Positions 1,094 through 23,064 of a stretch of 56,135 nt of DNA are shown here, one piece after another; position 1 is the stretch's first letter, and each line of letters opens with the position of its first letter. The DNA is from Lentilactobacillus dabitei. GTDB lineage: Bacteria; Bacillota; Bacilli; Lactobacillales; Lactobacillaceae. A program made the translations under genes and the position numbers. The notes under the pieces were generated by a model, which saw only the letters and a list, made by a program, of their open reading frames with translations, did no database searches and was not told the DNA's origin. The DNA lies in the NCBI RefSeq assembly GCF_019061365.1, contig NZ_JAHPPD010000005.1, forward strand, positions 1-56,135, given 5' to 3'.

Positions 1094-2187
1094 AGCTGCT
1101 CCTCCTGTTCTTCGACATGTTTGTCTTTATGCTCATCAATTGCTTTATGAGTCAATTTAGCATAATGCTTCTGTCGTTCAATAATTTGTTCAGGAGGCGT
1201 CATCTTTGGCGCTCTTGGATCTAATAACCAAGTAGCGGCATAATGGGTGTCTGACACCTTGAAGAATGGTGGTTCCTGCTTGGTATCAATCTCCAATGCG
1301 TATTTGTTTCGGGCAGCAAAAGCGTCACCCTTGGGTGGATCCAGTAAATCTGGTGGCGTTCCTGGAATTGAAGGTAATTCAGTCCCAGTTGTGTCCATCG
1401 TCGGCATTGAATTCAATAAGCCCCAAGTATAAGGGTGCTTTGGATTGTAGAAAATTTCATCCACGGTACCATATTCGACAATTTTGCCAGCATACATAAC
1501 GGCAACCCGATCGGCCATCCCAGCAACAACTCCCAAATCATGGGTAATGAAAATAATTGACGTGTTGGTTTTAGCTTGCAATTCTTTCATTAAATCCAAA
1601 ATCTGAGCCTGAATGGTTACATCCAGCGCAGTGGTTGGTTCATCGGCGATCAATATTTCAGGATAGTTAACCAAAGCAATCGCAATCACGATCCGTTGGC
1701 GCATTCCACCTGAGAATTGGTGAGGATAGTTATTAATCCGCTGTTCGGCATTTTCGATTCCAACCAGCTTCATCATTTCCAGTGCTTGGGCATAAGCCTT
1801 TTCGCGTTTCATACCCTTGTGAATGATCAGTGGTTCAGCGATTTGCTTACCAATCTTCATAGTTGGGTCCAAAGAAGTCATTGGATCCTGAAAGATTTCA
1901 GCAATGTCGTTCCCACGAATGGCATCCATTTCTTTTCTGTTTTTCTTCAATAAATCTTGATTCTTGAACATAATCGTCCCACTGTCAATCACGGCATTAG
2001 GAGAATTCAATCCCATAATACTTCGCGTGGTAACGGTCTTACCAGAACCAGATTCCCCAACGATCGCTAAGGTTTCACCCTTACGAAGGTCGAAGCTAAC
2101 GTCTCGAATCGCTTTAACAGTACCCGCATAGGTATTGAAGTTGATCTTGAGATTTCTGACCTCTAACACATTGTTTTCGTTTTCCAT
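1090..2187 (-). CDS. oppD: Oligopeptide ABC transporter ATP-binding protein OppD
   Basis: Second ATPase of the oligopeptide importer, 365 aa. Walker A GESGSGKT, signature SGGMRQR and Walker B/D-loop DEPTTALD are all visible, followed by the Opp-type C-terminal region with a conserved proline-rich segment (IPGTPPDL). The open frame reaches further upstream to 2259, but that would overlap oppC by 60 bases. The ATG at 2187 follows an AGGTG ribosome site and gives the usual family N-terminus (MENENNVLEV), so I chose it. It lies 10 bases after oppC and overlaps oppF by 4 bases. Confidence 0.93.
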   Translation of the reverse strand: MENENNVLEVRNLKINFNTYAGTVKAIRDVSFDLRKGETLAIVGESGSGKTVTTRSIMGLNSPNAVIDSGTIMFKNQDLLKKNRKEMDAIRGNDIAEIFQDPMTSLDPTMKIGKQIAEPLIIHKGMKREKAYAQALEMMKLVGIENAEQRINNYPHQFSGGMRQRIVIAIALVNYPEILIADEPTTALDVTIQAQILDLMKELQAKTNTSIIFITHDLGVVAGMADRVAVMYAGKIVEYGTVDEIFYNPKHPYTWGLLNSMPTMDTTGTELPSIPGTPPDLLDPPKGDAFAARNKYALEIDTKQEPPFFKVSDTHYAATWLLDPRAPKMTPPEQIIERQKHYAKLTHKAIDEHKDKHVEEQEEQL

Positions 2188-2197
2188 CTCAAAGCAC

Positions 2198-3226
2198 CTA
2201 CTCTCTACCCTTGGGGTCAAATGAATCACGTAATCCATCACCCAAGATATTAAATGCAATCATTAAGACTGACAACACGATTGCTGGATACCACATTTGA
2301 TATGGTAAGAATTGGAAGTTCTTCTGCCCATCATTAATCAAAGTACCAAGTGATGCCTGTGGCGCACTGATACCAATTCCGATATATGACAGGAAGGCCT
2401 CGAAGAAGATCGCTGTTGGAATCGTGAACATCAAGTTAATGATGATGACACTACTCAAGTTTGGCAGCAAATGCTTGAAAGAAATCTTCCAGGAACTTTC
2501 CCCAAGCGCTCGAGCCGCTAGGATGAATTCTTGGTTCTTAAGCTCCAGCGTTTGCGCTCGAACCAGTCGGGCCATGTTAATCCAACTGGTAATCGCAATT
2601 GAATAGATGATCGCAGACATACCGGGCTTCAATACCAAAATCAAGAGAACCATGACAACCAAGTTAGGAATTGACAGCATGATTTCAATGATTCGTTGCA
2701 TGATGGTATCAACTCGACCACCCATCCAGCCTGAAACGATTCCGTAAACAACACCGAATGCCAAGTCAAAGAAACTGGCAATCAACGCAATTTCAAGGGA
2801 AATCCGAGTTCCATAAAGGATCCGTGAGAATAAGTCACGACCAAGGTAGTCGGTTCCTAAAATATAGTAGGCATTGCCGGCGTGGGCCTGAACATAAGCA
2901 TTCACTCGGGTACCTGATTGTTCAATCGTTCCATTAAACCCGTTAATGTCAATGCCAGGAATCTTGGGTGGCAAGTTCGCCAAGTTGGGATTCGTTGCAT
3001 TGGGGTTGTGGGTTTCAAAGAAACCAGACCCAAAAGCCAAGATGAACAATATAATCAAAATGACTAAACAAATCATCGCTGCTTTATTTTTACGTAACCG
3101 TCGCCACGAATCTTGTAAGAAGGTTAACGATGGCGCTGAAATTTTTTCGCTGTCTAATTTACCACGGTCAGCAGCCGAAACTGGTTTGAAGTCGCCGGCT
3201 GAGATTGGTTTTGCATTATCTACCAT
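2198..3226 (-). CDS. oppC: Oligopeptide ABC transporter permease OppC
   Basis: Inner-membrane permease, 342 aa, that forms the translocation channel with OppB. A cytoplasmic N-terminal segment of about 45 residues precedes the first membrane helix (roughly 48-70). The rest has the BPD-transporter fold with the EAA-type loop (ARALGESSWKI...HLLPN, near residues 235-255) that contacts the ATPases. A GGAGGGAG ribosome site supports the start. It sits between oppB and oppD in the standard gene order. Confidence 0.93.
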   Translation of the reverse strand: MVDNAKPISAGDFKPVSAADRGKLDSEKISAPSLTFLQDSWRRLRKNKAAMICLVILIILFILAFGSGFFETHNPNATNPNLANLPPKIPGIDINGFNGTIEQSGTRVNAYVQAHAGNAYYILGTDYLGRDLFSRILYGTRISLEIALIASFFDLAFGVVYGIVSGWMGGRVDTIMQRIIEIMLSIPNLVVMVLLILVLKPGMSAIIYSIAITSWINMARLVRAQTLELKNQEFILAARALGESSWKISFKHLLPNLSSVIIINLMFTIPTAIFFEAFLSYIGIGISAPQASLGTLINDGQKNFQFLPYQMWYPAIVLSVLMIAFNILGDGLRDSFDPKGRE

Positions 3227-3240
3227 TATTATTCTCCCTC

Positions 3241-4170
3241 CTAGTTATTGTTACCACTAAGTCTGATTCGTGGATCAATTAATCCATATAAAATATCAGT
3301 GATCAACAGCACAACACAAAGCATTGCACAGTAGACAATCGTCAATCCCATGATGGTTGGGTAATCGTTAGTCAGAACGGACTTAACAAATTGTTCACCA
3401 ATTCCTGGCACTGAGAAGATATTTTCAACAACCATTGAACCAGTCATGATGTTAACGGTCAATGGACCAATAATCGTGATAATTGGGATCAAACTGTTCC
3501 GGAGAGCATGGTGGTAAATGATACCAACCTTGCCAAGCCCCTTAGCTTTAGCGAGTTCAATGTAGTCTGAACTCAACACATCGACCATTTCCGTCCGCAT
3601 GAATCGGGCGGTCTCGGCTAATGGTGACGCCGCCAGTGCTAATGTTGGCAACACCGTGTACATGAAGCCACCCCAGTCAGCAATTGGGAACCATCTCAGC
3701 TTTAAGCCAAGGTAGTACTGTAACAATACCGCCAAAACAAATGATGGGATTGAAACGAACAGGATTGAGACAATTGTTGCAGTGGTATCGATCCAGGTGT
3801 TGGCTTTCACAGCACCCAGTGAACCGACAACCAATCCAACCAATACTCCTAAGACCATTCCTTGACCACCAATGATAAGAGATGGTCCCATCCGACTACC
3901 AATCAGGTAGGAAACGGCTTGGTTACTGAACTGGAATGAAATTCCGAAGTTGCCGTGAACCACACCAGCTAAATAGACCAAGTATTGCTGCCATACGGGC
4001 TTGTCCAAACCGTACTGCTTATAAATCTGGTGAATCTGCCCCGGTGTCAGCTTGGCTTGATTAGTCAACGGCGTCCCAGGCATGAACTTCATCAGAAAAA
4101 AGGTGATTGTACTGACGATAAACAAGGTTAAAACAATATAAAATATTCGTTTTCCCAAGTACTTTACCAT
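3241..4170 (-). CDS. oppB: Oligopeptide ABC transporter permease OppB
   Basis: Inner-membrane permease, 309 aa, partner of OppC. It has the typical N-terminal helix (residues about 9-29), the PGTP motif at the start of the periplasmic-side loop, and the EAA loop (AKAKGLGKVGII..HALRNSLIP) near residues 205-230. A GAGGAA ribosome site precedes the start. A hairpin in the 126-base gap after oppA may lower its expression relative to the binding protein. Confidence 0.93.
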   Translation of the reverse strand: MVKYLGKRIFYIVLTLFIVSTITFFLMKFMPGTPLTNQAKLTPGQIHQIYKQYGLDKPVWQQYLVYLAGVVHGNFGISFQFSNQAVSYLIGSRMGPSLIIGGQGMVLGVLVGLVVGSLGAVKANTWIDTTATIVSILFVSIPSFVLAVLLQYYLGLKLRWFPIADWGGFMYTVLPTLALAASPLAETARFMRTEMVDVLSSDYIELAKAKGLGKVGIIYHHALRNSLIPIITIIGPLTVNIMTGSMVVENIFSVPGIGEQFVKSVLTNDYPTIMGLTIVYCAMLCVVLLITDILYGLIDPRIRLSGNNN

Positions 4171-4234
4171 ATGAGTTCCTCACATTCTAATTAGGTTGTT
4201 ACTGTTTTCTCATAAAGTCCATAATAATGTAAAA

Positions 4235-4260
4235 GAGACTGGAATTCAATAACCAGCCTC
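4235..4260 (-). terminator. Hairpin between oppA and oppB (partial terminator)
   Basis: On the minus strand, GAGGCTGG and CCAGTCTC pair and are followed by TTTTAC. The hairpin is short and its U tract weak. This fits leaky termination that would give more binding protein than permease. The role is inferred from position. Confidence 0.6.
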
Positions 4261-4296
4261 AAATACTTTGAACTGTAAAATTAAATTGAAACGTTA

Positions 4297-5919
4297 TTAC
4301 TTAACAGAAGCCTTAGCCCAGTCATATTGTGGTGATGTGGTGAAAGCTTGGACTCCTTTGACAGAAGGTCTGAGCAATGCAGCTTGACCTTGTTGGTAAA
4401 GCGGAACGAGTCCTTGATCGTTCATCAAAATCTTTTCAGCTTGAACCATGTCGTTCCAACGTGCCGTTTCATTGTTAGCATCCGTAGATTCAGACTTCTT
4501 GATCAAAGCATCATACTGCTTGTTTGACCATTTACCATCATTATATGAATTGTTTGAAGTCATCAAGTCCAAGAAGTTACTTGGATCTGGATAATCGGCA
4601 ATCCATGCAGAAAGAACTAAGTCAAATTGTTGATTTTGTGCTCGAGTCAATTTTGACTTGAATGGAATATTTTGATTAGTGATCTTCAACCCAGGTAATT
4701 TAGTTAATTGACTTTGAACAAATTCGGTTGCCCGCTTTGAATCATCATCATCGGCTCCAAGTAATGTTAATGATAAGGACTTCTTACCGACTTGTTTCAT
4801 TCCTTTGGCAAACAATGCCTTGGCTTCTTTCAAGTTGTAATCAGTACCATCTTTTACATATGATTGGGTGGCAAAGTCTTTGCCGTTATGCTTAGCCATA
4901 CTTGCTGGAACAAATCCCTTAGGTGTAATATCTCCACCTTGCATAACCTTATTGACCATTTGCTTCTTGTCAATTGCTAATGCCATCGCTTTACGGATAT
5001 CAGTGTTTCGAAGAGCAGGAATCTTTTTAGTATTAAATTCCATATACGAAGTTGATGCTTGTGGGAACACCGTGTAATCTTTGTTCTTCTTGTTATTTGC
5101 AGCTAGAGTTCCACTTAAAGTTGTAAAGTCAAGTTTGTTACTATTGTAACTGTTCAAAGCGGTTGAAGGTGTCTTAACAGCTTGGAACTTAACTGTATTA
5201 ACTTTAACGCTCTTGGCATCCCAATACTTAGGGTTCTTTACAAGTTTCCAAGTATCGTTAGTTCCATTCCATCCCTTAAGAATAAATGGTCCATTGTAAC
5301 TGTTCTTTGTAGAGTTGCCACCATAATCACCACCATACTTAGCAACCGTCTTCGAATTCTGTGGGAAGAATTCTGGTTGGGTAACCATGTATTTGAAGTA
5401 GCTTTGTGGCTTTTCAAGGGTAACAACAAACTTGTAATTACCGTCAGCCTTAACTCCTAACTTAGAAGGAGCCATCTTTCCGGCACTAATCTTTGCTGCA
5501 TTCTTGACGTTGGCAAATATGTATGCATACTGTGAAGCGGTTTTTGGCTTAACAGTTCTTTGCCATGAGAATACAAAATCTTTAGCAGTAACTGGGGTCC
5601 CATTGTTCCACTTGGAGTGACGTAGATTAAAAGTCCATGTCTTACCATCTTTGGAAACTGTGTAGCTCTTGGCAACCCCTGGATCAACTTTGTTGTTCTT
5701 GGCCATTCGAAGAAGTCCTTCATTTGTACCATTGGCAATTTGAGCTGAATATAAGTCAACCATTTTAGATGTATCCATCGTTGCAATAGGAGATGGTGTC
5801 ATCCAACTGATTTCCTGTTTCTTGGAGCCTGATTGTGATGATTTACTACCACACCCAGCGAGAACAACTGCAGATAATAATGCGACCCCGCCAAGTTTTG
5901 CTAATGAATTTAATTTCAT
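4297..5919 (-). CDS. oppA: Oligopeptide-binding lipoprotein OppA (copy 1)
   Basis: Extracellular lipid-anchored receptor that captures peptides for OppBCDF. The 540-aa precursor has a lipoprotein signal with lipobox LAGC (Cys23), then a Ser/Gln-rich linker and an SBP_bac_5 domain. Typical segments are visible, such as the NPKYWDA motif and the C-terminal DYPDPSNFLD. It is the first gene of the opp operon, with an AGGAAGG ribosome site and a good sigma-A promoter upstream. A close paralogue lies at 7201-8826. Confidence 0.94.
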   Translation of the reverse strand: MKLNSLAKLGGVALLSAVVLAGCGSKSSQSGSKKQEISWMTPSPIATMDTSKMVDLYSAQIANGTNEGLLRMAKNNKVDPGVAKSYTVSKDGKTWTFNLRHSKWNNGTPVTAKDFVFSWQRTVKPKTASQYAYIFANVKNAAKISAGKMAPSKLGVKADGNYKFVVTLEKPQSYFKYMVTQPEFFPQNSKTVAKYGGDYGGNSTKNSYNGPFILKGWNGTNDTWKLVKNPKYWDAKSVKVNTVKFQAVKTPSTALNSYNSNKLDFTTLSGTLAANNKKNKDYTVFPQASTSYMEFNTKKIPALRNTDIRKAMALAIDKKQMVNKVMQGGDITPKGFVPASMAKHNGKDFATQSYVKDGTDYNLKEAKALFAKGMKQVGKKSLSLTLLGADDDDSKRATEFVQSQLTKLPGLKITNQNIPFKSKLTRAQNQQFDLVLSAWIADYPDPSNFLDLMTSNNSYNDGKWSNKQYDALIKKSESTDANNETARWNDMVQAEKILMNDQGLVPLYQQGQAALLRPSVKGVQAFTTSPQYDWAKASVK

Positions 5920-18832: not shown

Positions 18833-18940
18833 CTTTGTTTAACTGCGGCAATCCATTGATCTATCGGCATAATATTTTGGTTAGTGATTATTTCGATATA
18901 TAATGCAATTAGTTATATTATTTGAACGGAGGTGCTGCCA

Positions 18941-19627
18941 ATGGATTACTGGTTATATCAACTGGAATGGGTGCTGCGGCTGTTTGTGGCCGCTATTTGC
19001 GGTGGCGCGGTCGGTTATGAGCGTAAAGTCCGCTTGAAGACTGCCGGCATTCGGACCCACATGTTGGTTGCGGTCGGTGCTGCCCTCTTCATGATCATTT
19101 CAAAATATGGTTTCTTTGATTTAACCGGTCACGCCACTGACATCAGCTTGGACCCATCCCGAGTGGCTTCCCAGGTTGTCACTGGAATTGGATTCATCGG
19201 TGCCGGCGCAATCATGACCAGAAACCACAAAATTGACGGTTTAACCACGGCGGCTGGCTTGTGGGCAACGGCAGCAATTGGTTTGGCTATCGGGGCTGAC
19301 ATGTATGTCATCGGCATTGCGGGTACGCTGTGCATTTTGATCACCCAAACGATTGTCCGCAGAATCAAGGCACTGAAACGCTACCCAAACCGCACTCTGA
19401 TCCGCCTGCAAGTAACCTTCACTGGAAAGCTAAACGATATGGATGCCCTGCCCAAGCGATTGCAAATTATCGGCAGTACCAATGTCCGCATGCGAATCTT
19501 AGCGTATAAGCCAGATTCGTTCTCACTAGAAATGCAAATTAGATTAATAAGACGAACAGATCCTGATGATTTCATCATGAAGATGAGTAATTTAGCGGAT
19601 GTGAAGAAGATTGATGTGCTGGATTGA
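18941..19627 (+). CDS. MgtC/SapB-family membrane protein
   Basis: Membrane protein of 228 aa with about four to five N-terminal helices and a soluble C-terminal domain. The MgtC signature is clear: LFVAAICGGAVGYERK at the N-terminus, RTHMLVAVGAALFM, and TGIGFIGAGAIM near residue 85. The C-terminal ACT-like region is present. Relatives act in magnesium limitation and acid stress, but the molecular role is debated. GGAGG lies 8 bases before the ATG at 18941; the GTG at 18932 overlaps the ribosome site. Confidence 0.85.
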   Translation: MDYWLYQLEWVLRLFVAAICGGAVGYERKVRLKTAGIRTHMLVAVGAALFMIISKYGFFDLTGHATDISLDPSRVASQVVTGIGFIGAGAIMTRNHKIDGLTTAAGLWATAAIGLAIGADMYVIGIAGTLCILITQTIVRRIKALKRYPNRTLIRLQVTFTGKLNDMDALPKRLQIIGSTNVRMRILAYKPDSFSLEMQIRLIRRTDPDDFIMKMSNLADVKKIDVLD

Positions 19628-19765
19628 GGCCAGAGCGCGACGAGACCCGGTTTGACCCCGGAGCATAAGCAGAATCAGCCAATGATGAACGCGTTTTGTT
19701 CATTGTTGGTTGGTTTTGCTTATGCAGTAGGGGTCAGGGTCGTCAGAGCGCATTTCCACTATATA
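19627..19765. repeat. Long imperfect palindrome (family C)
   Basis: Arms of about 50 bases pair around GCGTTTT: GACGAGACCC/GGGTCGTC outside, GCATAAGC/GCTTATGC in the middle and AATGATGAAC/GTTCATTGTT inside. It starts at the mgtC-like stop codon and may serve as its terminator, although no T run follows. A piece with similar end sequence (GTCAGGG-TGTCGGAGTGCATTT) is at 38215-38260. Confidence 0.75.
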
Positions 19766-19877
19766 ATGGCGTACAAAGCCAAAGTATCTTAGAGACCCGT
19801 CAAAGATTTCTACCGTAGTGGCGTCCTATACACACTATCTATAAGTAAATTACTCTCCGATAACCCCACCCCAATCC

Positions 19878-19906
19878 TTGAAACCACCCCACAAATCATG
19901 TATCAT
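19878..19906 (+). promoter_or_regulatory. Promoter of a possible small RNA
   Basis: TTGAAA and TATCAT are separated by 17 bases, and no open frame follows downstream on this strand. Confidence 0.6.
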
Positions 19907-19912
19907 AACTAT

Positions 19913-20212
19913 ATGAAAAGTGACTGCCGGTGGACGAGACCGACAGCCACAAACGTGAGTATGGATGATTTGGGCGAAGCTAATCTAAATGATTAGCTTT
20001 TTTTATTAGGTAATCCGCTCGCGCAAACGTTAAGCTTGCTTGTGCGGTTACCCAAATCATCACGGCGACTTGCACCGGGACGGCCTCCTAATCTTTCCAA
20101 TTGGCATGGCACCTCACCTCCGTGGGTATTCTTACTGAGGGGTGGGCACCATCCGTAATTCACTAAGCCAAAGTTGATTAGGTGCTACCTAAGTCTCTTG
20201 ACCATCTTTTAA
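19913..20212 (+). ncRNA. Possible structured non-coding RNA, unassigned
   Basis: Downstream of the promoter at 19878 lies a string of hairpins without a reading frame. The first pairs GTG-CTG-CGGT with ACCG-CAG-CAC at 19919-19950. The second is an intrinsic terminator at 19977-20004. The third pairs GGTAATCCGC with GCGGTTACC at 20009-20052. In addition, GATGATTTGGG (19963-19973) is complementary to CCCAAATCATC (20051-20061), and CCGGTG (from about 19927) to CACCGG (about 20075). So two alternative folds compete, one of them with the terminator. It resembles neither SRP, 6S, tmRNA nor RNase P RNA that I can recognise. A 90-nt small RNA ending at 20004 is the simplest reading. Confidence 0.45.
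19977..20004 (+). terminator. Terminator within the possible RNA
   Basis: AAGCTAATC and GATTAGCTT form a perfect 9-bp stem with a 5-base loop, followed by five further T residues. Confidence 0.82.
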
Positions 20213-20364
20213 TTTTAACAAGTAATTATGTTGCAATACAATCATTTTTCACTGCTCTTTTTCTCAAGTGGCTTGTGATATACTACCTATTTAAATATAT
20301 GTCGTATGTCAAATTTACGATGCACTCCTAATGAATTTTTCAAAATCATTTAAAACCCGGTTCT

Positions 20365-20412: not shown

Positions 20413-22982
20413 CTATTTAATTACCTTCACATACTTGCTATTAGCAGTTACATAACCACCAGCAACCGCATAACGTTTAGCACCAAAGGTCGTAGTTGAG
20501 TATGGTTGTGAGTATTCCCACTTCTTAACTTTCAACACGGTCCCCTTCTTAATGTGCTTCGTGCGTTTACTGAAGTTGGCGTTATTGTAACGATAAATGG
20601 CTTTCTTAACTTTGATTTGTTTCGGCTGCTTCTGGTTACCAGCAATCACAAGTTTGCGGTTTCCGGTAATGTAGTGACCATTACTCAAGAGGTAACGAGT
20701 CGTTAAGTTATGCTTAACAAAGCCCTTCACTTTGAGCTGCGTGCCTTGTTTGAAGTTCTTAACTTTGCCAGTCAAGTCCTTATTTGTATATTCATTGACA
20801 CCCCGCGGATTGATCACCGTCAGTGTCTTGTGAGAACTGTGATAATAAACTGGTCGAACAAAGGAATAATCAGCCGTAATATAACCTTTCTTACCTGCAG
20901 TTTTGCTATGATGGTTCACATCACGAACCACGTACCGCAAGTTGCCAGCTTTCGACTTCGCATAATCCGTTACCACAAACATTGGTCGATTAATTCGTGG
21001 CTTCTTGGCATAGTTGGCAACTCGTTCACTCTTCTTGAAGTCCTTATTACTGTACATGTAGATCTTCTTCAAAGCGTAAACGGCTTCACCCTTTTTGGCA
21101 ATGCCAGGGGTTGATGGCTGCGTTGTTACTGTCGGAGTTGATGGCGTTGGAGTTGGGTTAACTGGTGTTGGATTTGGCTCTGGCCCGGGGCCTGGGTTCG
21201 GATTGGGAGGGGTAACTTGTTTTTGATAATAGAGAATTACAGGTGCAGTATTCGCTACCAAAGTTCCGGATAAATTAGCTGGCATTTTCCCTCGAACTAG
21301 AATATAAAGTTGGCCGTTAATCGTTAAAGTATCCGGGTAATAATCATCGGTAACCGTATAAGGATCATTCACTGAACCGTGAATTAACTTTTGTTGAAGT
21401 AATTGATTATTATCATTGTCCAGATAGTTAACGTTTAGTGTAGTCTCATTGGCAAATGTCTTGGCATAGATCACATTAATGTTGCCTCCACTATCGGGAA
21501 TAATTACTTGATTATGCCCGGCATTATTTACAACTTTACTGTCATTAACAACGTAGCCGGGAATATCAGGAATATCTACTGCTTTCCCTGCAGCATCTTC
21601 ACCGCTAACATCATGACCCAATGAATTCCCATCCTTATCAACTGGGTGAATAGTGTAAGGAACCGTATTCTTATCATAAATAACTTTAATAATGGTAGTT
21701 TGGCTGCTATCACCGGCGGGTAAAGTAATTTGCCCATCTACAACCTTATTATCATTAACGGTGTACCCGGAAATAGTTGGTACACTTACCTTATCACCCT
21801 CTGTACCAGGAAATGATGTTGGCGTATAGCCACTAATGTTGTTACCATTTTTATCGACGGGTTGAATCTCATATTTAGATTCGGCCACATTGGTCTCATA
21901 TGGAATGTAAGCCGTAAAAGTTGGGTTTGTGTTTTGGCCTTGTCGATAATAAGCAATCATGTAGTTCTTATATGTGTTCTTTACAACTTTCATTTGATTA
22001 TTCCAAGGATTATCAGTCGTCGCCTCTGCTTGTGGGGCTAAGTCATTAAACAAAAGTGAATCACCACTAATTGTTGGCACGGCACCACCGTAAAAAATTT
22101 CAAGATAAGTATGTGGAAAATTTGGACCAGCCGGGTTGTCCTCTGGAGCATAATTTAAAACAACCCCTTGCCGGGCAGCAGAATAAACTTCCGTTGGCAA
22201 ATAGTTAACGTCCTTTGGTAACTTCCCCTCAAAAGGTGTTACCCAACTATAAGAATCACTCGGTAAGTTTTTGAATGGTAAAACATATGATTGCCCCTCA
22301 TACCAAAAGCCATCGGTATATTGTTTAGCATCTAATGACGATAAATCTGAAATGGAATTAAAATTGATGTTCAAATAAGTTACGTTTGGTAATTACTAAT
22401 TGGTGTAATATCCGTAATTCGTTCACGACTTAGATCAATTTTTTGAAGTTTAACTAAGCCACTTAAAGGTGAAACATCAACAATATCATTTCTGAATAGA
22501 TGATGGCCAAAATCAAAATTAGATTGTGAAAGTTCAAGATCGGTCAAATTTTTACAATATTCCAATCCTTTTAATGAATAATTCCCGGGATTTGGATTTG
22601 GTTGACCAATTGCCCCATTACCGCCATTCCAAGCATCCAGATTATTATAGTCATCTGACTTATCATCACCTGGCTGCCAAACCAGTTGAGTCATTTTACC
22701 CAGATCATCTTTAAAACTGGTTGGAGTAAATTGACTTAATGTGTATTCATCATCAACGATCCCTTGATCCTTCATGTTATACAAAACTAACTGTTGCAAT
22801 CGTTCGTTAGGCATTAATTCATCAAGTGCCGCGTTAGTATTAGTATCAGCAGCCAGAGTGCGCTGCTGTCCCCCTCCCATCAGATTAAACGATAGGCCAA
22901 ACAAGACTGTTGCCACGGCCACCATAATGGTCTTAAAAAGCCATCGCAGTTTTGCCTTTTGGTGATAATCAATATTATCCAT
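20413..22982 (-). pseudogene. Frameshifted cell-surface protein (LRR + MucBP-like + C-terminal SLAP-like repeats)
   Basis: Two adjacent frames are halves of one gene. The first (22982 to 22380) gives a signal peptide ending near LAAD, a conserved domain and leucine-rich repeats ending in ITDITPISN. The second (to 20413) continues in the next frame with LPNVTYLNINFNSISDL, two or three MucBP-like beta repeats, a Pro/Thr linker and C-terminal repeats (VYALKKIYMYSNKDF..., DUF5776-like). Adding one T in AATTACC near 22391-22394 restores a protein of about 856 aa that aligns end to end with the intact paralogue at 46641-48860. It is either a true pseudogene, a phase-variable allele or a sequencing error. 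There is no LPXTG anchor; wall binding is presumably by the repeats. Confidence 0.85.
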
Positions 22983-23064
22983 GACAAAATTCCCCCTCAA
23001 AATTTATATATAGTCTATACAAAAAATACATACGCTTATACCCCTTCAACAATTTCATTCTAAC

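What the first reader, a model, noticed from the sequence alone, without database searches (positions are those of the whole stretch)
19878..20212. Possible new structured RNA with mutually exclusive folds
A 785-base gap without a gene has a good promoter, several hairpins and an intrinsic terminator. Distant complementary segments (GATGATTTGGG/CCCAAATCATC and CCGGTG/CACCGG) would enclose and compete with the terminator, as in riboswitches and attenuators, but no gene follows on this strand.
Basis: partly seen in the sequence, partly recalled or inferred. Interest (0 to 1): 0.6.

Follow-up and report, generated by a model that had tools for sequence, protein, structure and literature searches.

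The report
Hidden toxin–antisense RNA pair
The "empty" gap holds two overlapping, opposite RNAs: one looks like the message for a tiny membrane toxin, the other like the antisense RNA that silences it, and the pair belongs to a family found in many lactobacilli that the RNA and protein family libraries searched here do not list.

Summary
Window 19878-20241 is a compact type I toxin-antitoxin-like module in a Lentilactobacillus genome. The minus strand encodes a ~290-nt mRNA: a 5' hairpin, a hairpin hiding a Shine-Dalgarno (SD) sequence, a 15-codon leader ORF overlapping a ~26-residue hydrophobic peptide (...LIKKANHLD), and a terminator.

A toxin profile matched 85 of 397 Lactobacillaceae genomes (49 at E<=1e-3). 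A covariance model built without Lentilactobacillus sequences found the window as best hit in 24 Lentilactobacillus genomes (E 1.6e-9). Antisense promoter, SD hairpin, start-3'UTR pairing and an SD-loop/3'UTR direct repeat recur above controls. No Rfam and no credible Pfam or NCBIfam match.

It works like par/Fst and aapA systems but is not Fst by its peptide. Expression and toxicity are untested; this copy's peptide is among the least hydrophobic, with D at a nearly invariant Y.

The parts
20212..20241 (-). Putative toxin-mRNA promoter, TTGTAT (20236-20241) - 18 - TAAAAT (20212-20217); TSS about 20205
   Evidence: Sequence; TAAAAT lines up near TATAAT of relatives; weak: the scorer preferred another site
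19913..20205 (-). Toxin mRNA, about 290 nt (both ends inferred)
   Evidence: Fold z -5.96 for 19900-20240 minus; homologues in L. rapi, L. kisonensis and other Lactobacillaceae
20101..20207 (-). Conserved 5' domain: hairpin TTAGGTAGCACCTAA (20178-20192), CTTAGTGA motif, SD-sequestering hairpin
   Evidence: Hit by covariance model R1, built from 18 sequences of other genera: 51.2 bits, E 1.6e-9 per genome, best hit in 24 Lentilactobacillus genomes; covariation
20115..20144 (-). SD1 GGAGGTG (20115-20121) paired with 20139-20144 (part of CCCACCCC); loop side carries ATACCCACG (20121-20129)
20060..20107 (-). Leader ORF MPIGKIRRPSRCKSP*, 7 nt after SD1; its TGA overlaps the toxin start (GTGATG)
   Evidence: the same GTGA overlap in C155/C55 and, by reading, in Loigolactobacillus L095/L117
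20083..20099 (-). Toxin SD stretch with SD2 AGGAGG (20084-20089); pairs with the 3'UTR segment in the predicted best fold
19980..20060 (-). Toxin-like peptide ORF from ATG at 20060: MIWVTAQASLTFARADYLIKKANHLD* (frame also open upstream to a GTG at 20075)
   Evidence: Matched by profile A3, which includes it (G000:C170:19983-20072); codon-position signal across the family; 1 of 128 bases differs from L. rapi over leader+toxin ORFs
20051..20061 (-). GATGATTTGGG at the toxin start: alternative 5' partner of the 3'UTR segment (11 bp)
   Evidence: best of 35 linkers for this start; suboptimal by 3.1 kcal/mol
19962..19975 (-). 3'UTR segment with CCCAAATCATC (19964-19974): 3' partner of either long-range contact
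19954..19962 (-). ATACTCACG, 3'UTR copy of the direct repeat (8 of 9 to the SD-loop copy 20121-20129)
19914..19950 (-). Intrinsic terminator of the toxin mRNA, 12-pair stem (19920-19950) and TTTTC
   Evidence: hairpin with changed stem in relatives
19878..19906 (+). Antisense RNA promoter TTGAAA-17-TATCAT
   Evidence: a promoter-like site at the same place in 35 of 44 members, window included
19913..20006 (+). Antisense RNA (putative antitoxin), about 94 nt: 5' hairpin, linker, terminator (both ends inferred)
19976..20006 (+). Antisense RNA terminator; its T tract and stem arm are the toxin codons for KKAN

Best explanation
The locus is a type I toxin-antitoxin-like module. A ~290-nt mRNA on the minus strand carries a short leader ORF translationally coupled to a ~26-residue hydrophobic peptide ending in KKANHLD. 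A ~94-nt antisense RNA, transcribed convergently from the plus-strand promoter, is fully complementary to the mRNA 3' part and, through a direct repeat, partly complementary to the SD-hairpin loop, so it would bind both and stop translation or trigger decay. Shown: conservation of structure, peptide frame, antisense promoter, repeat and start-3'UTR pairing in the family. Inferred: transcription, binding, coupling, toxicity.
For: Homologues with the same order of parts. Toxin profile: 85 of 397 Lactobacillaceae genomes at E<=0.05, 49 at E<=1e-3. Hold-out RNA model: window best hit in 24 Lentilactobacillus genomes, E 1.6e-9. Covariation on 18 sequences: 19 cells changed on both sides vs 6.3 in shuffles, 0/500; slid controls at most 8. 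Codon-position differences 0.46/0.38/0.66. Antisense promoter at KKA+85..+101 in 35 of 44 members. Direct repeat: own 16.0 vs permuted 12.49, sd 0.46, 0/20000; toxin start x 3'UTR pairing: own 22.4 vs 19.01, sd 0.58, 0/20000; controls 1254 to 5831 of 20000. The RNA model, which knows nothing of the peptide, led to a KKA reading frame at 200-230 nt in 24 of 30 hit loci, some of them training loci.
Against: No expression data. This copy's peptide ranks third lowest of 43 in hydrophobicity (0.82) and has D where Y is nearly invariant. Sense promoters are weak: mean z 0.73 over 44 members, and the window's is poor. Only 25 of 35 loci individually exceed their mean cross-locus repeat score, and L083 and L084 rank 28th of 35 for the start-3'UTR pairing. 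9 of 44 members lack a recognised SD and were dropped; SD patterns and test windows were chosen after viewing sequences. Covariation: the number of pairs with double changes (6) is not unusual, 66/500. Toxicity of any family member is unknown.
Confidence: 0.82

Rival explanations
1. The window copy is a decaying ('ghost') module: the family is a toxin-antitoxin family, but here the peptide is no longer active while antisense RNA and hairpins persist.
For: Lowered hydrophobicity and the Y-to-D change; the L. kisonensis orthologue has 16 bases fewer at the toxin start and lacks the 3' hairpin; no regulator-like gene downstream, which 8 of 44 members have.
Against: Between this genome and L. rapi only 1 of 128 positions differs in the leader and toxin ORFs, against 19 of 200 (gap positions counted) in the rest of the module; frame, antisense promoter, long-range pairing and 5' domain are intact.
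Confidence: 0.3
2. The peptide is a regulated small membrane protein without toxic role (stress signal or partner of a membrane protein), controlled by the same antisense RNA.
For: No toxicity data; small single-pass peptides need not be toxins.
Against: SD hairpin, convergent antisense RNA and direct repeats are the features read for par loci (passages of PMC7472228); several copies per genome in some genomes.
Confidence: 0.15
3. A plus-strand riboswitch or attenuator, as first proposed.
Against: The only plus-strand ORF of 60 codons or more after it and before 22526 is 20710-21114, which lies inside the opposite surface-protein gene; no Rfam match and, to E 10, only five miRNA/lncRNA models outside the module; the strong fold and the conserved covarying domain are on the minus strand.
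Confidence: 0.02
4. Only the two converging terminators of the neighbouring genes plus chance complementarity.
For: Convergent neighbours; one 11-base pair occurs in 113 of 2000 shuffles.
Against: Homologues in many genera with the same internal order.
Confidence: 0.01

Closest known systems
[quoted passage not shown] Lpt of L. rhamnosus)
   Same: Convergent promoters; toxin mRNA with 5' helix and a stem-loop sequestering the SD; direct repeats giving a second contact between the RNAs at the translation start; ~30-residue hydrophobic peptide (passages of PMC7472228 and PMC5608710).
   Different: The window peptide and 33 of 36 family peptides lack a P/D/S/TXXXG stretch, the other three have one near the N-end; no credible Pfam match; two separate terminators instead of one shared bidirectional one; antisense terminator inside the toxin's last codons; leader ORF; start-3'UTR pairing.
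aapA/IsoA of Helicobacter
   Same: SD-hiding hairpin plus a 5'-3' long-distance interaction making the full-length mRNA inert, with alternative structures (passages of PMC6733600).
   Different: Unrelated host group; peptides not compared here; the Lactobacillaceae mRNA adds a leader ORF and direct repeats.
Bacillus txpA/RatA, bsrG/SR4, bsrE/SR5, yonT/SR6
   Different: Peptides not compared directly, only by the absence of a credible Pfam match; here direct repeats add a second contact at the SD hairpin; found only in the window's family among 395 genomes of the order.

Membership tests
Type I toxin-antitoxin systems (as a kind) | Small hydrophobic peptide ORF on a structured mRNA | tested here: met
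   43 of 44 non-redundant members open over the last 24 codons (selected partly for this); third codon positions vary most; maximal 17-residue hydropathy 0.13-2.08, window 0.82
Type I toxin-antitoxin systems (as a kind) | Antisense RNA encoded on the opposite strand | tested here: met
   As sequence only: promoter-like site at a fixed place in 35 of 44 members, followed by a terminator-like hairpin. Expression not tested
Type I toxin-antitoxin systems (as a kind) | Peptide is toxic and antisense RNA neutralises it | not testable with these tools
   Needs bench work
par/Fst family | Toxin with the Fst signature / Pfam Fst match | tested here: not met
   36 of the 43 peptides scanned: no Pfam match at E<=0.01 except one member at 0.0092 to PF00893; the window peptide none at E<=10 in Pfam or NCBIfam; loose P/D/S/TXXXG in 3 of 36, not in the window. 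That Pfam and NCBIfam contain Fst models is recalled
par/Fst family | Direct repeats shared by SD region and the part covered by the antisense RNA | tested here: met
   0 of 20000 permutations reach the within-locus mean over 35 loci, 25 of 35 above their own cross-locus mean; window copy 8 of 9 bases, rank 3 of 35
par/Fst family | Shared bidirectional terminator | tested here: not met
   Window: mRNA terminator 19914-19950 and antisense terminator 19976-20006 are separate
par/Fst family | 5' stem-loop sequestering the SD | tested here: met
Any Rfam family | Match to a covariance model at gathering score | tested here: not met
   None in the window; in 20 loci of relatives only tRNA and tmRNA

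The most novel reading that the evidence does not exclude
A previously undescribed, widespread family of type I toxin-antitoxin loci of Lactobacillaceae, in which the antitoxin RNA's terminator is embedded in the toxin gene and imposes the KKAN tail of the peptide, and translation is held by stacked RNA devices (SD hairpin, leader-ORF coupling, switchable fold-back of the toxin SD or start on the 3'UTR) with locus-specific repeats setting which antitoxin matches which toxin; some loci add a small CcdA-like regulator gene.
Probability: 0.55. Interest if true: 0.65.

Novelty: new variant of a known kind. Interest (0 to 1): 0.55.

Why it matters
Lactobacillaceae are food and probiotic organisms, and the type I systems from them met in the literature searches here are the plasmid-borne Lpt and Lpt-like peptides. 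This family puts unannotated, highly structured toxin-antisense pairs in many of their genomes, sometimes several per genome, and supplies natural sets of matching repeat/antisense pairs for testing how type I specificity evolves. It is also a candidate case of a peptide motif imposed by the terminator of an RNA on the other strand, and it explains a gap that no gene fills.

Tried and rejected
Riboswitch/attenuator: no Rfam hit, no convincing downstream gene, wrong strand. tRNA: none. Plasmid or phage element: no DNA match of the window element in PLSDB or INPHARED records, nor of the C155 copy in PLSDB. Known toxin family: no credible match in Pfam, NCBIfam, PHROGs or the PDB (weak ones listed: PF00893 at E 0.0092 and 0.017, DUF4781 0.097, OB_RRP5 0.1, phrog_12304 0.087). 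Plasmid tblastn with the Pediococcus peptide gave only three hits at E 6, phages none. First alignment A1 had L. kisonensis in the wrong orientation and was replaced by A2. An early idea that the 16 bases around GATGATTTGG were an insertion in the window was dropped: the window frame is the family frame, so L. kisonensis more likely lost them. RNAalifold on the long MAFFT alignment found no consensus; shorter anchored alignments were used. The outer 5' helix and outer part of the SD hairpin look compensated by eye but were not counted, because MAFFT shifts them by a column. Rows dropped: 16 of 60 as near-duplicates and one tandem remnant before that count, 9 of 44 for want of a recognised SD, L100 for a stop, 7 of 43 peptides from A6, and four profile hits (L091, L098, L105, L107) because they lack KKA-N/K/R/S/H/D; these carry KETN, KKAT or KEAN instead, so the KKA invariance is partly by selection. 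Literature: Fozo 2010 and the T1TAdb paper are not held, so an entry in T1TAdb cannot be excluded; searches for the peptide strings and for type I systems in Lactobacillaceae found no report of this family (listings only, except the passages named in the report).

Full report
Observation. The gap between the mgtC-like gene (18932-19627, plus) and the convergent surface-protein gene (20413-22374, minus) is 785 bases, as stated. By themselves they are weak: promoter-like and terminator-like counts are near shuffled values, and an 11-base inverted pair occurs in 113 of 2000 shuffles. The fold is much stronger on the other strand: z -5.96 on minus (19900-20240) against -2.58 on plus (19910-20215).

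Relatives. A DNA search of 60 related genomes found a copy at 92% in G016 and one at 74% in G004, plus a diverged copy in the same genome on contig C155. In L. kisonensis the element lies between the same two neighbours. The C155 copy and its relatives in L. rapi and L. kisonensis, aligned with the window in the minus orientation, showed an ordered RNA: 5' hairpin, SD hairpin, short ORF, A tract with hairpin, 3' hairpin with TTTTC. The L. kisonensis orthologue of the window copy lacks the last hairpin.

The peptide. Reading these copies in three frames showed a common hydrophobic peptide ending in IKKAN. Pediococcus acidilactici carries MAWALAFYVVCRGILLLAKAYEIIKKANHIK. A profile of five such peptides, the window's among them, matched 85 of 397 Lactobacillaceae genomes at E<=0.05 and 49 at E<=1e-3, in 24 of 40 genera at the looser limit (about 20 genomes would be expected by chance at 0.05). 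I extracted 60 copies that hold a KKA motif and kept 44 after removing near-duplicates (the window is one of the 44). 43 of 44 are open over the last 24 codons (the sample was chosen partly for that); differences at codon positions 1, 2, 3 are 0.46, 0.38, 0.66 over all pairs, and 0.57, 0.44, 0.72 for the window against the rest. In 36 of the 43 peptides A20 is invariant and Y21, I24 and N28 nearly so; K25, K26 and A27 are invariant too, but that is partly by selection, since four profile hits with KETN, KKAT or KEAN were left out. The peptides match no Pfam family except single weak hits (best E 0.0092 to PF00893), nothing in NCBIfam and no PDB chain.

The RNA. A covariance model R1 (107 positions) was built from 18 sequences, none from Lentilactobacillus, though the loci had been found with the peptide profile. 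In 24 Lentilactobacillus genomes its best hit was the window copy (20101-20207 minus, 51.2 bits, E 1.6e-9); 12 of 24 had a hit at E<=1. On the alignment behind the model 87.8% of cells pair; 19 cells changed on both sides against 6.3 in shuffles (0 of 500) and at most 8 in slid versions, while the number of pairs with such changes (6) is not unusual (66 of 500). Mean fold z-scores of 35 members with a recognised SD are -2.4 (5' region; 29 of 35 below -1), -2.0 (SD hairpin; 27) and -4.2 (3' part; 34). In 395 genomes of the order, with stricter filters, R1 hit 17 at E<=0.01, all in the window's family. In 24 of the 30 hit loci looked at (of 34 matches), a KKA reading frame lies 200-230 nt after the start of the hit, one of them (L158) with a stop just before it; one more is doubtful and five have none. 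Several of these loci are training loci or known copies.

The antisense RNA. In 35 of 44 members the best promoter-like site on the opposite strand predicts a start 85-101 nt beyond the KKA codons, at the outer end of the mRNA terminator, usually with a 17-base spacer (mean z 1.86 over shuffled regions, 31 of 44 above 1). The sense promoters score less (mean z 0.73, 17 of 44 above 1). The antisense terminator's T tract and stem arm are the codons of KKAN, so the peptide's tail coincides with a terminator on the other strand; that the terminator imposes the tail is inference.

Contacts. (a) A direct repeat links the SD-hairpin loop and the 3'UTR covered by the antisense RNA: within-locus mean 16.0, permuted 12.49 (sd 0.46), 0 of 20000; controls 2122 and 1254 of 20000. 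25 of 35 loci exceed their own cross-locus mean. The repeat differs between loci; in the window it is ATACCCACG/ATACTCACG (rank 3 of 35). (b) The toxin SD/start region pairs with the 3'UTR: own 22.4, permuted 19.01 (sd 0.58), 0 of 20000; control 5831 of 20000 (a first version with shorter windows, agreed but cut off the window's own pair). Test windows and SD patterns were set after looking at the sequences, so the controls matter more than the exact numbers. In the predicted best fold of the window mRNA the same 3'UTR segment pairs instead with the toxin SD stretch 20083-20099; enforcing the 11-bp pairing costs 3.1 kcal/mol, and its probability is 0.01-0.08. Both folds keep the SD1 hairpin, the antisense-terminator hairpin and the mRNA terminator.

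Mechanism. By analogy with par (passages of PMC7472228; PMC5608710), aapA (passages of PMC6733600) and the Bacillus systems with 3' overlap (passages of PMC6562991): the mRNA is made inert by the SD hairpin and the fold-back; the antisense RNA binds the 3' part and, through the repeat, the SD loop. The leader ORF's stop codon overlaps the toxin start (TGA in GTGATG in the window; GTGA in C155 and Loigolactobacillus), which suggests translational coupling. The in-frame GTG at 20075 is GCG in L. rapi (position 20074), so the start is more likely the GTG/ATG at 20063-20058.

State of this copy. Leader and toxin ORFs differ from L. rapi at 1 of 128 positions, the rest of the module (5' leader, 3'UTR linker, mRNA terminator, antisense promoter) at 19 of 200, gap positions counted, which argues for constraint. 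Against it, the window peptide is third lowest of 43 in hydropathy and has D at the nearly invariant Y, the sense promoter is weak, and the L. kisonensis orthologue is damaged. Eight of 44 members have a small regulator-like gene directly downstream (phrog_2277; weak CcdA similarity), none upstream; the window has none.

Verdict. The finding is real; its reading as a plus-strand riboswitch-like RNA is wrong, but the call for a conserved structured RNA without an Rfam family, and for a meaningful long-range pairing with alternatives, is right. It works like a type I toxin-antitoxin locus of the par sort; it is not a member of the Fst family by the features tested (toxin signature and shared terminator not met). 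No description of the family was found in the searches named, but T1TAdb and Fozo 2010 could not be read.

Noticed in passing
window 19632-19770: Dispersed intergenic repeat with a 28-base imperfect inverted repeat (arms 19663-19690 and 19698-19725, 82% complementary); 11 of 24 Lentilactobacillus genomes carry it at E<=1e-5, up to 34 matches per genome.
   Followed up: partly
L037 1623-1808 and loci L046-L075: A 62-residue regulator-like protein family (phrog_2277, weak CcdA similarity) in 42 of 295 genomes of the order; several copies outside this RNA family lie downstream of other tiny ORFs that look hydrophobic, so more unannotated modules of this kind may exist (the last part by eye).
   Followed up: partly
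L132 (G555:C1:549400-551600) and L138 (G385:C1:2121600-2123150): Modules occur in arrays: both orientations in one genome, tandem copies in another.
   Followed up: no
window 20413-22374 and 22380-23000, minus: Two ORFs in different frames that together look like one leucine-rich-repeat surface protein split by a frameshift near 22374-22380 (by eye).
   Followed up: no
L078 1273-1380, minus: In Pediococcus acidilactici a second small membrane-peptide-like ORF (MPGIITGALIFLGLSYLVFFGAQVYFKVKTGHWNR) follows the module, where some other genomes have the regulator gene.
   Followed up: no
L043 and L044: Partial copies of the 3' part of the module only, in L. rapi and in the window's own genome, with a degraded reading frame.
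   Followed up: partly
L091, L098, L105, L107: Toxin-profile hits whose tail is KETN, KKAT or KEAN instead of KKAN; whether their antisense terminator is changed too was not examined.
   Followed up: no
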